Position numbers and translations under genes: made by a program | In this document: piece after piece, positions 2,769 through 39,881 of the stretch | How positions within the stretch are numbered: position 1 is the first letter of the stretch | Layout of the letters: every line of letters starts with the position of its first letter | Assembly: GCA_026985735.1 (NCBI GenBank) | Contig: JALSPW010000160.1 | Location: forward strand, 1-39,881 | Reading direction: 5' to 3' | Length of the DNA stretch: 39,881 nt | From: Saprospiraceae bacterium | GTDB lineage: Bacteria; Bacteroidota; Bacteroidia; Chitinophagales; Saprospiraceae | Notes under the pieces: generated by a model | Databases searched by the model: none | What the model was told of the DNA's origin: nothing | What the model saw: only the letters and a program-made list of their open reading frames with translations

Positions 2769-4403
2769 TTAAGTTTGTATAACCCCAACATTAAATTTTT
2801 CGATTTTGGCATTATTTGCGGCTTCAAGAGCTTTGGAAATATACAATCTGGTTTCCAAGGGATTGATAATTTCATCCACCCACATCCTTGCTGCGGCATA
2901 ATAAGGGGATGTTTGTCTATCGTAATTAGTCTTAGTCTTTTCAAATAATTTTTTTTCCTCTTCCGGTCTAGGCTCTGCTCCTTGCTTTTTTAATGCAGAA
3001 ACTTGAATTTGAGTCAACACTTTAGCTGCTTGAGTACCTCCCATTACAGCTATTTTAGCACTCGGCCAAGCGTAAATAAACCTAGGATCATATGCTTTGC
3101 CGCACATTGCATAGTTACCCGCGCCATACGAGTTTCCTAAAATAATAGTTATCTTAGGAACAGTCGAATTTGAGACAGCATTAACCATTTTTGCACCGTC
3201 TTTGATAATACCTCCGTGTTCTGATCTTTTACCAACCATAAACCCGGTGACGTCATGTAAGAATATAAGTGGTATCTTCTTTTGATTGCAATTTAAAATA
3301 AATCTAGCAGCCTTATCAGCTGAGTCCGAATAAATAACTCCTCCGAATTGAAGTTCTCCATTTGCTGATTTTACTACTTTCCTTTCATTTGCCACTATTC
3401 CAACGGCCCAACCGTCAATTCTGGCATAAGCTGTAATTAAGGTTTTTCCAAACCCATCTTTGTAATATGTCAATTCAGAGTCATCAACCAGTATTTCAAG
3501 CAATTCCTTCATGTCATATGGTTTTGTACGATCCTCAGGAAATATTTTAAAAATATCTTTAATGTTTCTTTTAGGTTTTTTTGGTTCTATTCTGTCAAAA
3601 CCTGCTTTTTCTTTTTTACCTGTTTTATTAATTAAACTTCGGATTAAATCAAGAGCCTCGTGATCAGTTTTTACTTTATAATCGACAACTCCTGATATGT
3701 CTGTTTGAGTTTTTGCCCCACCTAAAGTCTCTTGATCTACATTCTCTCCAATAGCAGCTTTTACAAGAAATGGACCGGCAAGAAAAATTGAGCCGGTTGT
3801 TTCAATTATTATTGACTCATCAGACATTATAGGGAGGTAAGCTCCTCCTGCAACGCAACTTCCCATGATAGCAGCAATTTGCAATATACCTTTGGAGGAC
3901 ATTACGGCATTGTTTCTGAATATTCGTCCAAAATGCTCCTTGTCCGGAAAAATTTCATCTTGCATCGGAAGATATACTCCTGCACTATCTACCAAATAAA
4001 TAATAGGAATGTGATTTTCCATTGCAATTTCCTGTGCTCTAAGATTTTTTTTGCCTGTCATTGGAAACCATGCACCTGCTTTAACAGTTGCATCATTGGC
4101 AACAATTACACACAATCTACCTTCGACGTATCCCAATCCGGTCACAACACCTGCAGCTGGGCATCCGCCGTGTTCCTGATACATCTCATCAGCAGCAAAA
4201 AGCCCAAATTCAAAAAACTTTGTATTTTTATCTATTAGGTATTGCACTCGTTCTCTGGCTGTAAGTTTTCCCTTGCTGTGTTGTTTGTCAATTTTGGTTT
4301 TGCCTCCACCCAACTTTATTTTATTTGCTTTATGATTAAGCCTACTTAATAAAAGTTTATTAGCATCATTATTGATTTTATAGTCTAAGTTTTGCTCTTT
4401 CAT
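2769..4403 (-). CDS. Acyl-CoA carboxylase, carboxyltransferase (beta) subunit, methylcrotonoyl-CoA type
   Basis: 544 aa, the usual length for the family. It transfers CO2 from carboxybiotin to an acyl-CoA. Both halves of the carboxyltransferase fold are present: an N-terminal crotonase-like half (about 45-280, with LTARERVQYLID, GVVTGLGYVEGR, ANDATVKAGAWFP, YLVDSAGVYLP, GSCVAGGAYLP) and a C-terminal half (about 290-530, with HDVTGFMVGKRSE and the Gly-rich GNSYGAGNYAMCGKAYDPR). The ANDATVKAGA and DSAGVYLPMQDEIFPD segments resemble MccB (leucine breakdown) more than propionyl-CoA carboxylase, but substrate cannot be fixed from sequence alone. The biotin-carboxylase/BCCP partner is not in this window. 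The upstream 160-nt gap shared with the dynamin-like gene carries a MITE-like repeat end. Confidence 0.92.
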   Translation of the reverse strand: MKEQNLDYKINNDANKLLLSRLNHKANKIKLGGGKTKIDKQHSKGKLTARERVQYLIDKNTKFFEFGLFAADEMYQEHGGCPAAGVVTGLGYVEGRLCVIVANDATVKAGAWFPMTGKKNLRAQEIAMENHIPIIYLVDSAGVYLPMQDEIFPDKEHFGRIFRNNAVMSSKGILQIAAIMGSCVAGGAYLPIMSDESIIIETTGSIFLAGPFLVKAAIGENVDQETLGGAKTQTDISGVVDYKVKTDHEALDLIRSLINKTGKKEKAGFDRIEPKKPKRNIKDIFKIFPEDRTKPYDMKELLEILVDDSELTYYKDGFGKTLITAYARIDGWAVGIVANERKVVKSANGELQFGGVIYSDSADKAARFILNCNQKKIPLIFLHDVTGFMVGKRSEHGGIIKDGAKMVNAVSNSTVPKITIILGNSYGAGNYAMCGKAYDPRFIYAWPSAKIAVMGGTQAAKVLTQIQVSALKKQGAEPRPEEEKKLFEKTKTNYDRQTSPYYAAARMWVDEIINPLETRLYISKALEAANNAKIEKFNVGVIQT

Positions 4404-36148: not shown

Positions 36149-39100
36149 TTATTTTGATATATTATAAATGTAATTTTCAGGTATTTTTATTACAACCCTT
36201 GTGCCGTATTTTACATTTTCATCTTCAAAAATATCGTCTTCATAATAACTCTGTATTTTAGCTCGATTTATATCATCATCATTATATATAATATGCAATT
36301 CATTAAGCATTTTTACTCCGGTTTGATTGCCTCTTGATTTTATGTTTTTTGCTGCTGTTCGACCATTTCCATCGTCAGTGATTGTGATTACGATATATTG
36401 GTCTGCAGCAAAAACATCAACTTTCACAAAAGAACTGTTTACTCTATTTCTAATGCCGTGTTCAATTGCATTTTCTACGTGAATCTGTATTTGTAAAACA
36501 ATTATTTCCAAATCCCCAAATTTATTTAAAGATTCCAAGGATGGGGGGATATACTTAAATGTATTTCCGAACCTCAATTGTTGTATTGTAATATAGTTTT
36601 GAATAATTTCTAATTCTTCTTTCAATTTATGAACAGCAGATCCTGACTTAGTTATTTTAAAAATATAATTAATATTATCCGACAATCTTCCTATCATTTT
36701 TGTCATCTCAGGGTCTTTATAATATTTTGACTGTACCCAATGAAGGCTATTATTGATAAAATGCGGGTTAAATGTACTTATTATTGCCTGGACTTTAAGT
36801 TGGGTTTTTTCATTTTCTGTTTTTGCCAAAGATAATTCTTTTTTTGCTATTTGTTTTATTTTCTCTTTACGATAATAGAAAAACCCTGATAATAAGGACA
36901 AAAAGATGACACTCAGGAGTAACCAAATCCAGGGATTTTCCCCAAAAGTGTATGGTACAAATATACTTAAAACAGCCGTATCTTTCAAAATACCATTTTT
37001 ATATGCCTTTACTTTTAATAAATAATTATCCGGATTAAAGTAATCAATTCTTAAACTATTATTCTTACTTCTGCATTGGTTAATTAATGTGTCGTTTTTG
37101 CTATTTGTAAGCATGAAGTCATAATAGATATTATTTAAAAAGGAAGGATTATCCTTTGATGAAAATCTTATATTCAAATTCCTTTTAACTGCATTAATTT
37201 TAATTTTATCATCAGATATTTCCAAATAATTATCAGCATTTTTCACATCATCAAATTTTATATCAATGCCGGTTGTATCGATATGAATAGCCCACATATC
37301 AATTTTTAATACGCCATCTATAGTTGAAACCCATAGATACCTTTCCTTATCATAAAGCATACAGTTTTGCTCTGTTCCTGAACCATTAATATCCTCTCCA
37401 TATATTAACTGATGAATAGGAGATTTGACTTGAGGGTCAAAATATCCTTTTTTCAAAAAGCTTATTCCTGTTTTATTACCTACAACGATAAATTTCCCAA
37501 CTTCTTTAATTGCTGCAACTAATGAATTGTCACCATTTGGCAATTCTATATGTACAGCTTGGTCAAAAATATTTGAATTATAAATATCAAATTTACTTAC
37601 ATCTTTTAATATATAAAGACCTTTATTTGTGCCCAACCACAATTGATCATATCTATCTATATACATAGAGACGACGCCAAAACTTTTCTTTTCATCCAAA
37701 TCATAAATATATTGAATTACTGTATCCGCTTTTGTGTCAAATACCGCTAATCCTGCAGTGAATCTACCAAGCCATATTCGGCTATTATCATCTTGGTCAA
37801 ACACCCATGAATTGCCGTGTTTCATTCCATAATTATCAGCTAAAGCTGTGATATAAACCCTGTTTTTGACTATACTATCCAATACACCAAAATTATCATA
37901 TTGCATGGAAAATGCCAATCTTCCATCGTTGAGTGTATCTATAAAATAGCCTTTAGCCCATGACCTTTGTCCATTAGAGTATATTTCATAAGCCTTGATC
38001 TTATTATTTTTGAGTATATTCAATGTATTATAGCCCTCGTTAAAAAAATAAGCTTCATTTTCATTGAGAGCAAAACCTCCATTTAATATATTTTTATATT
38101 TCCCTTTCTGAAATGGAGCTGACATGAGTACAAAATCATTGTTTTTCAATTTGCAAAATCCTGAACCATATCCTGCCATCAGGATAGTTCCTTTATGCTT
38201 AACTATAGATCTTATATTTTTGTTTATACCAGAATTATGAAGTGAATAATACGTATTATTAGGATTTACTTTAAACATTCCTTCAAAAGATCCTACAAAA
38301 AATAAATCTTCGCTTATTCTTTTGTAATTTGCTCTTGGTATATTAAATGTCCCTCTATAATTGATTCCTGTAAGTGTATCAAAAGAAACAAAATGCAATT
38401 TATTCTCTTGTTCAAATATATTGGAAGTAATTATTTTATTGTGATCATCAAATCTTTGTTTTCCTACTAATCTATAATTTAATGAAGGAGATACTGATTT
38501 ATGCATTTCCGATAAGGGATAAATAGTATCTTTAAAGAAATCCCACTTGATATCTCCCGTTATTTGATTAAGAAAAATATTTTTGCCGTTAAAAGAGCCT
38601 TGGCATTGAAATGAATTGACAGGTATGTAAATAAAAGTATCAGCAACTATATCATAATAACTTTCACCTTTATTATATTCTAATTTGGTCTTGACCCTTT
38701 TTCTATATATTAGTGTTTTTTTATTATTTTTATCCAAATAAATATAAGGATAATGAGTCTTAACGGAAATGTCGGGATTTTTTATTTTCATTAAAAAATC
38801 CCATTTCGCAAAATTCTCATTAAAGTACAATATAGTGTCTGAATTGAACCCCAATAATGTATCGTGAAAAACAATATTGCTATTTGGGGTTTTTATCGTC
38901 ATCCAATCACCACCGACAGGTCTGTACCAATAATTATTCACGGTATTTCGCATAAAATATCCTTTTTTCAGATATTTTATTTCCCTGAACATATATTTAC
39001 TTGGAGGGTGTTTTATTTCTTTAAAATCTATTCCGTTAAAGGTATATAAATTGACTTCATCTGTGGACAAAAACAGAGTATCATTGGCGTAAGCAAGATA

Positions 39101-39217
39101 AAAGTAGTAATAATCCGGCATACCGGTTTCAGTAGTATATTTTTTGTAAGCAGGCTCCTGCCCAAAGAGCATAATAGTTAAAAAAAGAAATAATATGGTC
39201 AAAGTGGTTTTAAACAT
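36149..39217 (-). CDS. Histidine kinase of LytS/YehU type with N-terminal two-component propeller sensor
   Basis: 1022 aa. A signal peptide (FKTTLTILFLFLTIMLFG) precedes a large periplasmic beta-propeller region with regulator-propeller motifs such as DDNSRIWLGRFTAGL, DRYDQLWLGTNKGLYIL and ERYLWVSTIDGVLKI, then a Y_Y_Y Ig-like domain (about 680-755, ending NPDNYLLKVKAYKNG). One membrane helix (about 763-783, WIWLLLSVIFLSLLSGFF) and a coiled linker lead to the His_kinase domain (PF06580) with phospho-His H819 in FNPHFINNSLHWVQ, and an HATPase_c domain with N-box E915-N916 in HVENAIEHGIRNR and G-box DDGNGRTA. It should sense an envelope or glycan signal and phosphorylate a LytTR response regulator, but no regulator gene is beside it in the window. 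The promoter predicts a leaderless mRNA. Confidence 0.93.
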   Translation of the reverse strand: MFKTTLTILFLFLTIMLFGQEPAYKKYTTETGMPDYYYFYLAYANDTLFLSTDEVNLYTFNGIDFKEIKHPPSKYMFREIKYLKKGYFMRNTVNNYWYRPVGGDWMTIKTPNSNIVFHDTLLGFNSDTILYFNENFAKWDFLMKIKNPDISVKTHYPYIYLDKNNKKTLIYRKRVKTKLEYNKGESYYDIVADTFIYIPVNSFQCQGSFNGKNIFLNQITGDIKWDFFKDTIYPLSEMHKSVSPSLNYRLVGKQRFDDHNKIITSNIFEQENKLHFVSFDTLTGINYRGTFNIPRANYKRISEDLFFVGSFEGMFKVNPNNTYYSLHNSGINKNIRSIVKHKGTILMAGYGSGFCKLKNNDFVLMSAPFQKGKYKNILNGGFALNENEAYFFNEGYNTLNILKNNKIKAYEIYSNGQRSWAKGYFIDTLNDGRLAFSMQYDNFGVLDSIVKNRVYITALADNYGMKHGNSWVFDQDDNSRIWLGRFTAGLAVFDTKADTVIQYIYDLDEKKSFGVVSMYIDRYDQLWLGTNKGLYILKDVSKFDIYNSNIFDQAVHIELPNGDNSLVAAIKEVGKFIVVGNKTGISFLKKGYFDPQVKSPIHQLIYGEDINGSGTEQNCMLYDKERYLWVSTIDGVLKIDMWAIHIDTTGIDIKFDDVKNADNYLEISDDKIKINAVKRNLNIRFSSKDNPSFLNNIYYDFMLTNSKNDTLINQCRSKNNSLRIDYFNPDNYLLKVKAYKNGILKDTAVLSIFVPYTFGENPWIWLLLSVIFLSLLSGFFYYRKEKIKQIAKKELSLAKTENEKTQLKVQAIISTFNPHFINNSLHWVQSKYYKDPEMTKMIGRLSDNINYIFKITKSGSAVHKLKEELEIIQNYITIQQLRFGNTFKYIPPSLESLNKFGDLEIIVLQIQIHVENAIEHGIRNRVNSSFVKVDVFAADQYIVITITDDGNGRTAAKNIKSRGNQTGVKMLNELHIIYNDDDINRAKIQSYYEDDIFEDENVKYGTRVVIKIPENYIYNISK

Positions 39218-39221
39218 TACG

Positions 39222-39254
39222 CAAATATAGTCAAATAAACATAGAATGTTACAA
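39222..39254 (-). promoter_or_regulatory. Promoter of the histidine kinase gene; predicts a leaderless mRNA
   Basis: On the minus strand, TTG (39254-39252), a 22-nt spacer and TATATTTG (39229-39222) followed by CG. The ATG at 39217 is only 4 nt past the -7 box, the same geometry as pyrR. Confidence 0.65.
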
Positions 39255-39566
39255 TTTGGTGTTTTTCTATTTCATACAAGCGCCTCAATCAATTATAGGA
39301 GTCATGGGAGAGTATGGCAAAAAAAAACGATATCTTTGACAAAAAATCAGAAGGGCAACTAAACAAAAAAATGACATTCATGCACTGTTCAGCCCTTGTT
39401 TAAATGATTTCGCCCTATGTTCATGCACATTGGGCATTTTGAGGTCTCATAAAAATGGTTGACAAAAACATGTGAACCGTGAATGTATTGTTTAAAAATT
39501 TAAGGTTTCAAGTTTCAAGTTTGAAAGATAAAAGTAAAAAGATAAAAGGGGACAATGGTGATTTTA
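39255..39566. other. Non-coding stretch of 312 bp before the GC-rich repeats
   Basis: No convincing gene. It holds a near-perfect palindrome (39412-39435), a repeated TTCATGCAC (39377-39385 and 39420-39428) and a short micro-repeat region with GTTTCAAGTTTCAAGTTTG (39505-39523). A 29-codon open frame at 39314-39403 is too short to support as a gene. Confidence 0.5.
39412..39435. repeat. 24-bp near-perfect palindrome
   Basis: GCCC-t-ATGT-t-CATG-c-ACAT-t-GGGC: 20 of 24 positions are symmetric, with mismatches only at the four joints. It could be a dimer-binding operator or a short hairpin. It lies in a region without genes, about 200 nt upstream of the histidine kinase start. Confidence 0.45.
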
Positions 39567-39683
39567 GCAACGCTACCCCCTCAAGCAACGCTCAAAGCAC
39601 TGCGCTCCCCCTTATAATTTTCTTTCACTTCGTTGCAGAAAATGATAGGGGGAAGTGGCACTACTTTGGGGGACGTGCGGGAT
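39567..39683. repeat. GC-rich hairpin repeat, copy 1 (117 bp)
   Basis: This copy and the one at 39765-39881 differ at a single base over 117 bp. The unit starts GCAACGCTACCCCCTCA and contains a large stem: CCCCCTTATAATTTTCT (39607-39623) pairs with AGAAAATGATAGGGGG (39637-39652) around a 13-nt loop. Base composition is far richer in G and C than the surrounding genes. Open frames crossing it are spurious. Confidence 0.85.
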
Positions 39684-39689
39684 GCGGTT

Positions 39690-39724
39690 CTCCCGATTTC
39701 GCAGCGTAGCGGAGAAATGGGGAG
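39690..39724. repeat. Second hairpin of the GC-rich unit
   Basis: CTCCCGATTTC (39690-39700) pairs with GAAATGGGGAG (39714-39724), 10 of 11 positions, around a 13-nt loop GCAGCGTAGCGGA. It sits in the 81-bp spacer between the two 117-bp copies and has the same loop size as the first hairpin. Confidence 0.7.
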
Positions 39725-39730
39725 TCAGAG

Positions 39731-39762
39731 GGTAGCTGTGCAAAAAGGTAGTTGTGCAAAAT
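39731..39762 (+). repeat. 16-bp tandem repeat, two units
   Basis: GGTAGCTGTGCAAAAA is followed directly by GGTAGTTGTGCAAAAT (14 of 16 identical), inside the spacer of the GC-rich repeat block. Confidence 0.7.
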
Positions 39763-39764
39763 TG

Positions 39765-39881
39765 GCAACGCTACCCCCTCAGGCAACGCTCAAAGCACTG
39801 CGCTCCCCCTTATAATTTTCTTTCACTTCGTTGCAGAAAATGATAGGGGGAAGTGGCACTACTTTGGGGGACGTGCGGGAT
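39765..39881. repeat. GC-rich hairpin repeat, copy 2 (cut by the window end)
   Basis: Repeat of 39567-39683 at a distance of 198 bp, with one substitution (G for A at the TCAAGC position). The window stops exactly where copy 1 passes into its spacer, so the repeat may continue as a tandem array with a 198-bp period. Confidence 0.85.

What the first reader, a model, noticed from the sequence alone, without database searches (positions are those of the whole stretch)
39567..39881. GC-rich hairpin repeat block with 198-bp period at the window edge
Two 117-bp copies differ at one base, and each carries a long stem with a 13-nt loop; the spacer has a second stem with a 13-nt loop and a 16-bp tandem pair. 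Composition is sharply different from the AT-rich genome. Near-identity of copies implies recent amplification or gene conversion. It may be a REP/BIME-like element, a satellite, or an insertion hot spot. The flanking 300 bp also has no genes.
Basis: partly seen in the sequence, partly recalled or inferred. Interest (0 to 1): 0.55.

Follow-up and report, generated by a model that had tools for sequence, protein, structure and literature searches.

The report
Genus-specific composite hairpin repeat family
The GC-rich repeat at the end of this contig belongs to a family of short, hairpin-packed DNA elements scattered through one genus of Saprospiraceae bacteria; they are built from interchangeable hairpins, in sister species some sit inside small transposon shells, and they are an elaborate variant of a known kind of bacterial miniature mobile DNA.

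Summary
In detail: two 117-bp copies with one difference, period 198, GC 0.524 against 0.318. The block is neither a plain RAYT-REP nor a satellite. It is a copy of a dispersed, modular hairpin repeat found in all five genomes searched from its genus (13-44 model matches each) and in 0 of 148 other family genomes sampled. A unit joins hairpin A, hairpin B and inverted ends; other copies carry extra hairpin modules. In three sister species 20-21-bp inverted ends with 8-bp target duplications (18 of 36 at >=7/8; shuffled mean 0.375) enclose some copies, and one orthologous site differs by presence/absence of such an element. The window's genome shows no such ends and no Y1 transposase match. Stem A covaries, without strand bias (GU 20, AC 22), and one hairpin core is exactly inverted at one site: this fits DNA template switching better than a one-strand RNA. 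The window pair is best read as a recent head-to-tail duplication of a non-autonomous composite element. Closest known: pneumococcal BOX elements and other MITEs. What moved it in this genome is not shown.

The parts
39567..39683 (+). copy 1 of the 117-nt repeated part
39765..39881 (+). copy 2 of the 117-nt repeated part, cut by the contig end
39605..39655 (+). hairpin A, copy 1 (19-nt arms, 13-nt loop)
   Evidence: covariation across copies
39803..39853 (+). hairpin A, copy 2
39690..39724 (+). hairpin B; its 13-nt loop, read on the other strand, matches the loop of A at 9 of 13
39562..39581 (+). left inner inverted end (TTTTAGCAACGCTACCCCCT), pairs with 39727-39746
   Evidence: I2, 80%
39727..39746 (+). 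right inner inverted end (AGAGGGTAGCTGTGCAAAAA)
   Evidence: I2
39731..39761 (+). 16-bp tandem pair: the right end GGTAGCTGTGCAAAA repeated once with one change
36149..39217 (-). neighbouring gene, 1022 aa; the block lies about 350 bp upstream of its start; best relatives in G003 (61%) and G004 (59%), where no block-A match is listed on the contig and none was seen in the upstream stretch held (1.5 kb and 0.4 kb)

Best explanation
The block is a head-to-tail pair of a non-autonomous, composite palindromic element (MITE/BOX-like), known so far from one Saprospiraceae genus. SHOWN: the unit is dispersed in the five genomes searched from the genus, mostly outside ORFs, without orientation preference; it holds two related hairpins (A and B, opposite orientation) between imperfect inverted ends; in three sister species some copies lie in a shell with 20-21-bp inverted ends, shells make 8-bp target duplications, and one orthologous site differs by presence/absence of a shelled copy; further hairpins occur as inserts in some copies, one of them a 36-nt presence/absence difference at an orthologous site. 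INFERRED: a transposase acting in trans spread the shelled copies; copies in the window's genome descend from the same module without the shell; the hairpins stay paired mainly through template switching during replication; the window pair arose by a recent tandem duplication, which may go on beyond the contig end. No host function is needed.
For: Dispersal: 13, 17, 27, 44 and 35 model matches in G000-G004 (150 of 3407-4065 first-look candidates scored per genome; a few matches are opposite-strand or hairpin-B echoes); 0 of 148 other family genomes (stricter filters, 28 candidates scored each); 0 of 55 relatives outside the genus by BLAST. Shell: pattern AGGTGCATTTCATTTTTTCGC (<=3 mismatches) 0, 3, 293, 109, 152 times in G000-G004, backward control 0 in each; 36 distinct pairs, 8/8 duplication in 12, >=7/8 in 18, shuffled flanks mean 0.375, max 2 in 200 runs. 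Of 84 distinct block-A copies, 20 have both shell ends, 14 one, 50 none. Presence/absence: G003:C46 filled, G002:C119 unfilled, joined flanks 86% alike over 700. Hairpin insert of 36 nt at one site, present in L051 (matches G003:C475 by coordinates), absent in G002:C53. Stem A: 97.0% of cells paired, 10 of 16 pairs with changes on both sides; 0 of 500 shuffles as high on four of five measures, 22 of 500 on the fifth; GU 20 vs AC 22. Exact inversion of a 27-nt hairpin core at one site, a described result of template switching (PMC8604942, passages; PMC8794818, abstract and opening, on stem creation and repair). Context: 55 of 64 copies outside ORFs of 100 aa or more although such ORFs cover 0.77 of the loci; tandem 15 co-oriented and 15 opposite, 13 convergent, 11 divergent, much like the background of gaps of 150 bp or more (59, 19, 24). 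Six of six close head-to-tail pairs (see the Full report section for what was left out).
Against: The window's own genome has 0 shell ends, and of 13 unshelled copies tested only 1 shows an 8/8 flanking repeat (shuffled mean 0.63, max 3), so transposition there is not shown. Half of the shell pairs (18 of 36) lack a clear duplication. At the presence/absence site the duplication is 7 of 8 and the unfilled sequence is 3 nt shorter than a clean empty site would be. No autonomous partner of the shell was identified. Only 5 of 12 strictly flanked inserts fold as well as or better than 95% of shuffles. A second empty-site try (L018 in G003) failed because the flank diverges. Covariation was counted on an alignment fitted to the structure, from related rows.
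Confidence: 0.7

Rival explanations
1. RAYT-driven REP/BIME: the hairpins are GTAG-tagged REPs moved as single strands by a Y1 tyrosine transposase.
For: GTAG/GGTAG lies near the hairpins and at the unit's right end; Y1 matches occur in 4 of 5 genomes of the genus; unshelled copies show no target duplication, as this mechanism would give; in G004, 5 of 35 block-A matches have a GTAG REP motif within 500 bp against 0.4 expected; G004:C335 holds both a block-A copy and a Y1 gene, 4.7 kb apart.
Against: No Y1 match in G000. Y1 loci L035, L037 and L038 are flanked by a different short repeat whose motif GGCGACATTATGGTAG (<=1 mismatch) is absent from G000 and G003, while block A is present in both. 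Blast of nine element sequences against the ten Y1 loci (E <= 0.01) hit only L033, at a 90-bp shell element about 850 bp away.
Confidence: 0.12
2. Structured non-coding RNA or a terminator/attenuator with a host function.
For: As RNA the 315-nt block folds better than all 100 shuffles on both strands (z -3.3 and -4.7; as DNA one unit has z -1.9, 7 of 200 shuffles as good); strong stem covariation.
Against: No excess of GU over AC (20 and 22); no preference for one gene orientation; no terminator-like site at 39100-39881; five weak Rfam matches up to E 1, best 0.31 to a microRNA family, all below the gathering score; genus-restricted and variable copy number.
Confidence: 0.1
3. Assembly artefact: one copy, doubled by the assembler at a repeat.
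For: Draft of 321 contigs; the contig ends inside the repeat; several other contigs end at copies too.
Against: The copies differ at one base and have a distinct spacer; the identical run (99) is shorter than the apparent k of 127; other close head-to-tail pairs exist inside contigs of sister genomes.
Confidence: 0.06

Closest known systems
BOX elements of Streptococcus pneumoniae (PMC3049150, passages read)
   Same: composite of modules that fold into hairpins, variable internal modules that can be tandem, inverted ends, target duplications, dispersed, proposed to be moved in trans
   Different: no sequence relation known (not compared here); GC-rich in an AT-rich genome; small hairpins are found inserted inside other modules; many copies lack the inverted-end shell; no IS partner identified
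MITEs in general (named in PMC3733652 and PMC3049150, passages)
   Same: inverted ends, 8-bp duplications, short, no transposase inside (shelled copies in G002-G004)
   Different: the window's copies have no shell and no demonstrable duplication
REP/BIME with RAYT (PMC3733652, passages read)
   Same: palindromic, mostly extragenic, hairpins in opposite orientation, GTAG near the stems
   Different: longer stem (16 modelled pairs; 5-13 bp in that paper's table), units near 170-200 bp, close pairs head-to-tail, no Y1 match in the window's genome
Rickettsia RPE in-frame palindromic elements (mentioned in PMC3733652)
   Same: hairpin A lies inside a repeated open frame in several G001 copies
   Different: that frame has no Pfam match (one copy searched) and is not shown to be a gene

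Membership tests
MITE (shelled copies, G002-G004) | terminal inverted repeats | tested here: met
   36 distinct inverted pairs; 20 of 84 distinct block-A copies have both ends.
MITE (shelled copies, G002-G004) | target-site duplication on insertion | tested here: met
   18 of 36 at >=7/8 vs 0.375 in shuffles; 7/8 at the presence/absence site.
MITE (shelled copies, G002-G004) | moved in trans by an IS with the same ends | not tested
   No autonomous element with these ends was identified; one search lists only part of the matches.
MITE (the window's copy) | terminal inverted repeats | tested here: inconclusive
   No shell end in G000; only an imperfect inner inverted end, 80% over 20 nt.
MITE (the window's copy) | target-site duplication on insertion | not testable with these tools
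   The right end is beyond the contig; 13 unshelled copies elsewhere show no signal.
BOX-like composite element | modules in a fixed order with variable internal modules | tested here: met
   B follows A within 450 bp in 47 of 84 copies; module C between them in some, and three times in tandem in L154/L002.
BOX (Streptococcus) proper | boxA/boxB/boxC sequence | not tested
   No comparison with boxA/B/C was made.
RAYT-REP | 20-40-nt hairpin with GTAG at one end | tested here: inconclusive
   Hairpin A spans 51 nt; GTAG follows it in the consensus of 28 copies but not in every copy, and the window has GTGG there.
RAYT-REP | flanks a Y1 transposase gene | tested here: not met
   No Y1 match in G000; ten Y1 loci of the genus do not carry the unit beside the gene within the stretches held.
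Structured RNA | stem kept on one strand, GU tolerated over AC | tested here: not met
   Covariation yes, GU 20 vs AC 22 (small numbers, related rows).

The most novel reading that the evidence does not exclude
The composite elements grow like nested dolls: hairpins of about 20-70 nt are themselves mobile and insert, without target duplication, into the stems or loops of other hairpins, and the result is then spread by a different shell that makes 8-bp duplications. This would be a two-tier mobile system with an unidentified single-strand or replication-based insertion step.
Probability: 0.25. Interest if true: 0.55.

Novelty: new variant of a known kind. Interest (0 to 1): 0.33.

Why it matters
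It gives a natural case in which strong base-pair covariation is seen without strand bias and together with an exact hairpin-core inversion, that is, covariation that need not mean a functional RNA. It also offers a set of sister genomes in which nested hairpin insertions can be ordered by presence/absence at orthologous sites.

Tried and rejected
Rejected or set aside: Rfam families (five weak matches only); Y1/RAYT as the mover (speaks the other way for G004); phage or plasmid carriage (no match in viral contigs by exact pattern, or in phages or plasmids by blastn); terminator. A first idea, written in note 1, that the contig end marks k = 99 was dropped when two contigs were found to overlap by 127. 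A loose insert survey aligned unrelated flanks and was replaced by a strict one, where 7 of 12 inserts are not clearly hairpins. The empty-site try with L018 was uninformative. No target duplications were found for unshelled copies. Literature: searches listed no paper that names such a family in this group; I judged from the listings (and passages of PMC3733652), and the library holds open-licence papers only.

Full report
What is there. The window is the whole contig G000:C160 of a 3.08-Mb, 321-contig assembly. At its right end, 39567-39683 and 39765-39881 are 117-nt copies with one difference; period 198; GC 0.524 in a contig of 0.318. Each copy holds hairpin A (39605-39655); between them lie hairpin B (39690-39724) and a 16-bp pair (39731-39761), which is the unit's right end repeated with one change. 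The unit's ends pair imperfectly (39562-39581 with 39727-39746, 80%), and the 13-nt loop of B, read on the other strand, matches the loop of A at 9 of 13.

Where else it is. In its own genome the DNA query gave 11 matches, itself included. Of 60 genomes (own and relatives), 5 matched, the five of the genus (at most 12 candidates scored per genome). A covariance model of block A gave 13, 17, 27, 44 and 35 matches in those five (150 candidates scored per genome, so possibly lower bounds, and a few matches are echoes). In 150 family genomes it matched 2, the window's own and G001 (stricter filters). An exact pattern in named genomes hit 11 stretches, each titled a Saprospiraceae bacterium MAG; their contig numbers, lengths and coordinates fit G001-G004, which is why I call the genus Saprospiraceae. 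No match in viral contigs (exact pattern), phages or plasmids (blastn).

Anatomy across copies. From 105 model matches I kept 84 distinct copies (the rows dropped are told in Tried and rejected). B follows within 450 bp in 47 of 84. Some copies hold a module C between A and B, whose hairpin stems differ between copies while the loops TAAAT and ATCA mostly stay (12 true copies of 14 rows); in C249 of the window's genome it occurs three times with period 80. Further hairpins, called D, E and F here, show up as inserts: strictly flanked cases are few (12 inserts, 5 clearly hairpin-forming). The end motif of D (TTTCACGGGGTAAAC, <=1 mismatch) occurs 2, 0, 25, 23 and 42 times in G000-G004, backward control 3 in G002 and 0 elsewhere.

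Mobility. In G002, G003 and G004 a 21-nt end sequence occurs 293, 109 and 152 times (3 in G001, 0 in G000; backward control 0). In inverted pairs it bounds elements of 51-387 bp (20-nt ends); of 36 distinct ones, 12 have perfect 8-bp duplications and 18 at least 7 of 8, against a shuffled mean of 0.375. A frequent small form, 89 bp, holds a mini hairpin B; forms of 257-259 bp hold A+B as in the window. Twenty of 84 block-A copies have both shell ends, 14 one, 50 none. At one site G003 carries a 372-bp shelled A+C+B element where G002 runs on without it; the duplication there is AAATAATA/AGATAATA, and the G002 sequence is 3 nt shorter than a clean empty site would be; the joined flanks are 86% alike over 700. 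That it is an insertion in G003 rather than a loss in G002 is inferred. At another site both species carry the unit, but only L051 (G003:C475 by coordinates) has a further 36-nt hairpin in it, without target duplication; the same alignment shows a 21-nt palindromic stretch upstream that only G002 has. Thirteen unshelled copies show no duplication signal (1 of 13; shuffled mean 0.63, max 3). So movement is supported for the shelled form in sister species and only inferred for the window's genome.

What keeps the stems paired. On 94 distinct rows stem A is paired in 97.0% of cells, with both-side changes at 10 of 16 pairs; no shuffle is as high on four of five measures, 22 of 500 are on the number of pair types. 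If one RNA strand were selected, GU should exceed AC; they are 20 and 22. One hairpin B core of 27 nt is the exact reverse complement of the usual core (L114, the same site as L045; its orthologue L051 differs by one base). Of 40 hairpins B scored, 36 are in the usual orientation, 2 (this one site in two species) inverted, 2 could not be told. Arm homogenisation and spacer inversion are described results of template switching (PMC8604942, passages); template switching as a source and repairer of stems is described in PMC8794818 (abstract and opening). I therefore favour a DNA-level explanation; selection on cruciform or single-strand DNA, or on RNA of both strands, is not excluded.

Context. 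Of 64 copies with 700 bp or more on both sides, 9 overlap a frame of 100 aa or more, though such frames cover 0.77 of these loci; some of those 9 frames may be made by the repeat itself. Of the other 55, 30 lie between tandem genes (15 co-oriented, 15 opposite), 13 between convergent, 11 between divergent, and one could not be classed; background gaps of 150 bp or more are 59 tandem, 19 convergent, 24 divergent. This is what selection against insertions in genes would give, and does not look like a terminator or leader.

REP and RAYT. Y1 transposase matches were found in 4 of 5 genomes, not in G000. L035, L037 and L038 lie among short hairpins ending GACATTATGGTAG. The motif GGCGACATTATGGTAG occurs 0, 16, 6, 0 and 64 times in G000-G004, a distribution unlike that of block A. 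But in G004, 5 of 35 block-A matches have it within 500 bp where 0.4 would be expected by uniform placement: the two kinds cluster, by nested insertion or by sharing the same gaps. So the genus has a REP system that is distinct from this unit, though not without contact with it. For this I raised the RAYT rival from 0.10 to 0.12 and lowered my own reading from 0.72 to 0.70.

The tandem pair. Two contigs of this assembly overlap by exactly 127 bases, a usual sign of a de Bruijn assembly with k = 127 (recalled). The copies share only 99 identical bases up to the contig end, so the path from one to the next is unique at that k. Close pairs (starts under 700 bp apart, both matches whole and above 34 bits): C160 in G000, C9 in G001, C100 in G002, C105 in G003 and two in C598 of G004; 6 of 6 are head-to-tail. 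Left out of this count are weaker opposite-strand matches of 28-33 bits (in C160, C117, C307, C632), which overlap a copy or fall on a hairpin B, the partial matches in C9 and C637, and a weak whole match beside the partial one in C637. The window pair, differing at one base in 117, is read as recent.

Verdict. An elaborate composite MITE-like repeat, most like pneumococcal BOX in plan (PMC3049150, passages); no sequence comparison with BOX was made. Ordinary in kind, unusual in its nested hairpins.

Noticed in passing
L035, L037, L038 (G002:C102, G004:C335, G001:C140): Y1 transposase genes of 153 aa flanked by arrays of short GTAG-type hairpins: a REP/RAYT-like system in this genus.
   Followed up: partly
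G004: C14, C312, C386, C397, C570: GTAG REP motif within 500 bp of a block-A copy at 5 of 35 matches, against 0.4 expected.
   Followed up: partly
L013 7-642 and L021, L025, L166, L167, L168, L170 (G001); L005 (G000): Hairpin A lies inside a repeated open frame of 100-250 codons (some cut by contig ends) with more changes at third positions (207 vs 168 and 122) and synonymous fraction 0.37 vs 0.23 expected, from non-independent pairs of five copies; no Pfam match for the copy searched. Possibly an in-frame palindromic insertion.
   Followed up: partly
L033 555-645: A 90-bp shelled element appears to lie in frame near the start of a predicted protein (read by eye).
   Followed up: no
L028 vs L023 (G002:C70, G003:C605): Seen by eye: L028 holds an extra stretch of roughly 170 bp bounded by CTAGTGC...GCACTAG where L023 has none; perhaps a further miniature element family.
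   Followed up: no
L002 1260-1500 / L154 (G000:C249): Module C three times in tandem, period 80, with CCAAAAGAG-TAAAT-CTCTTTTGG hairpins.
   Followed up: partly
G002: 293 end matches of the shell in a 4.1-Mb genome, a high MITE load; parent IS not identified.
   Followed up: partly
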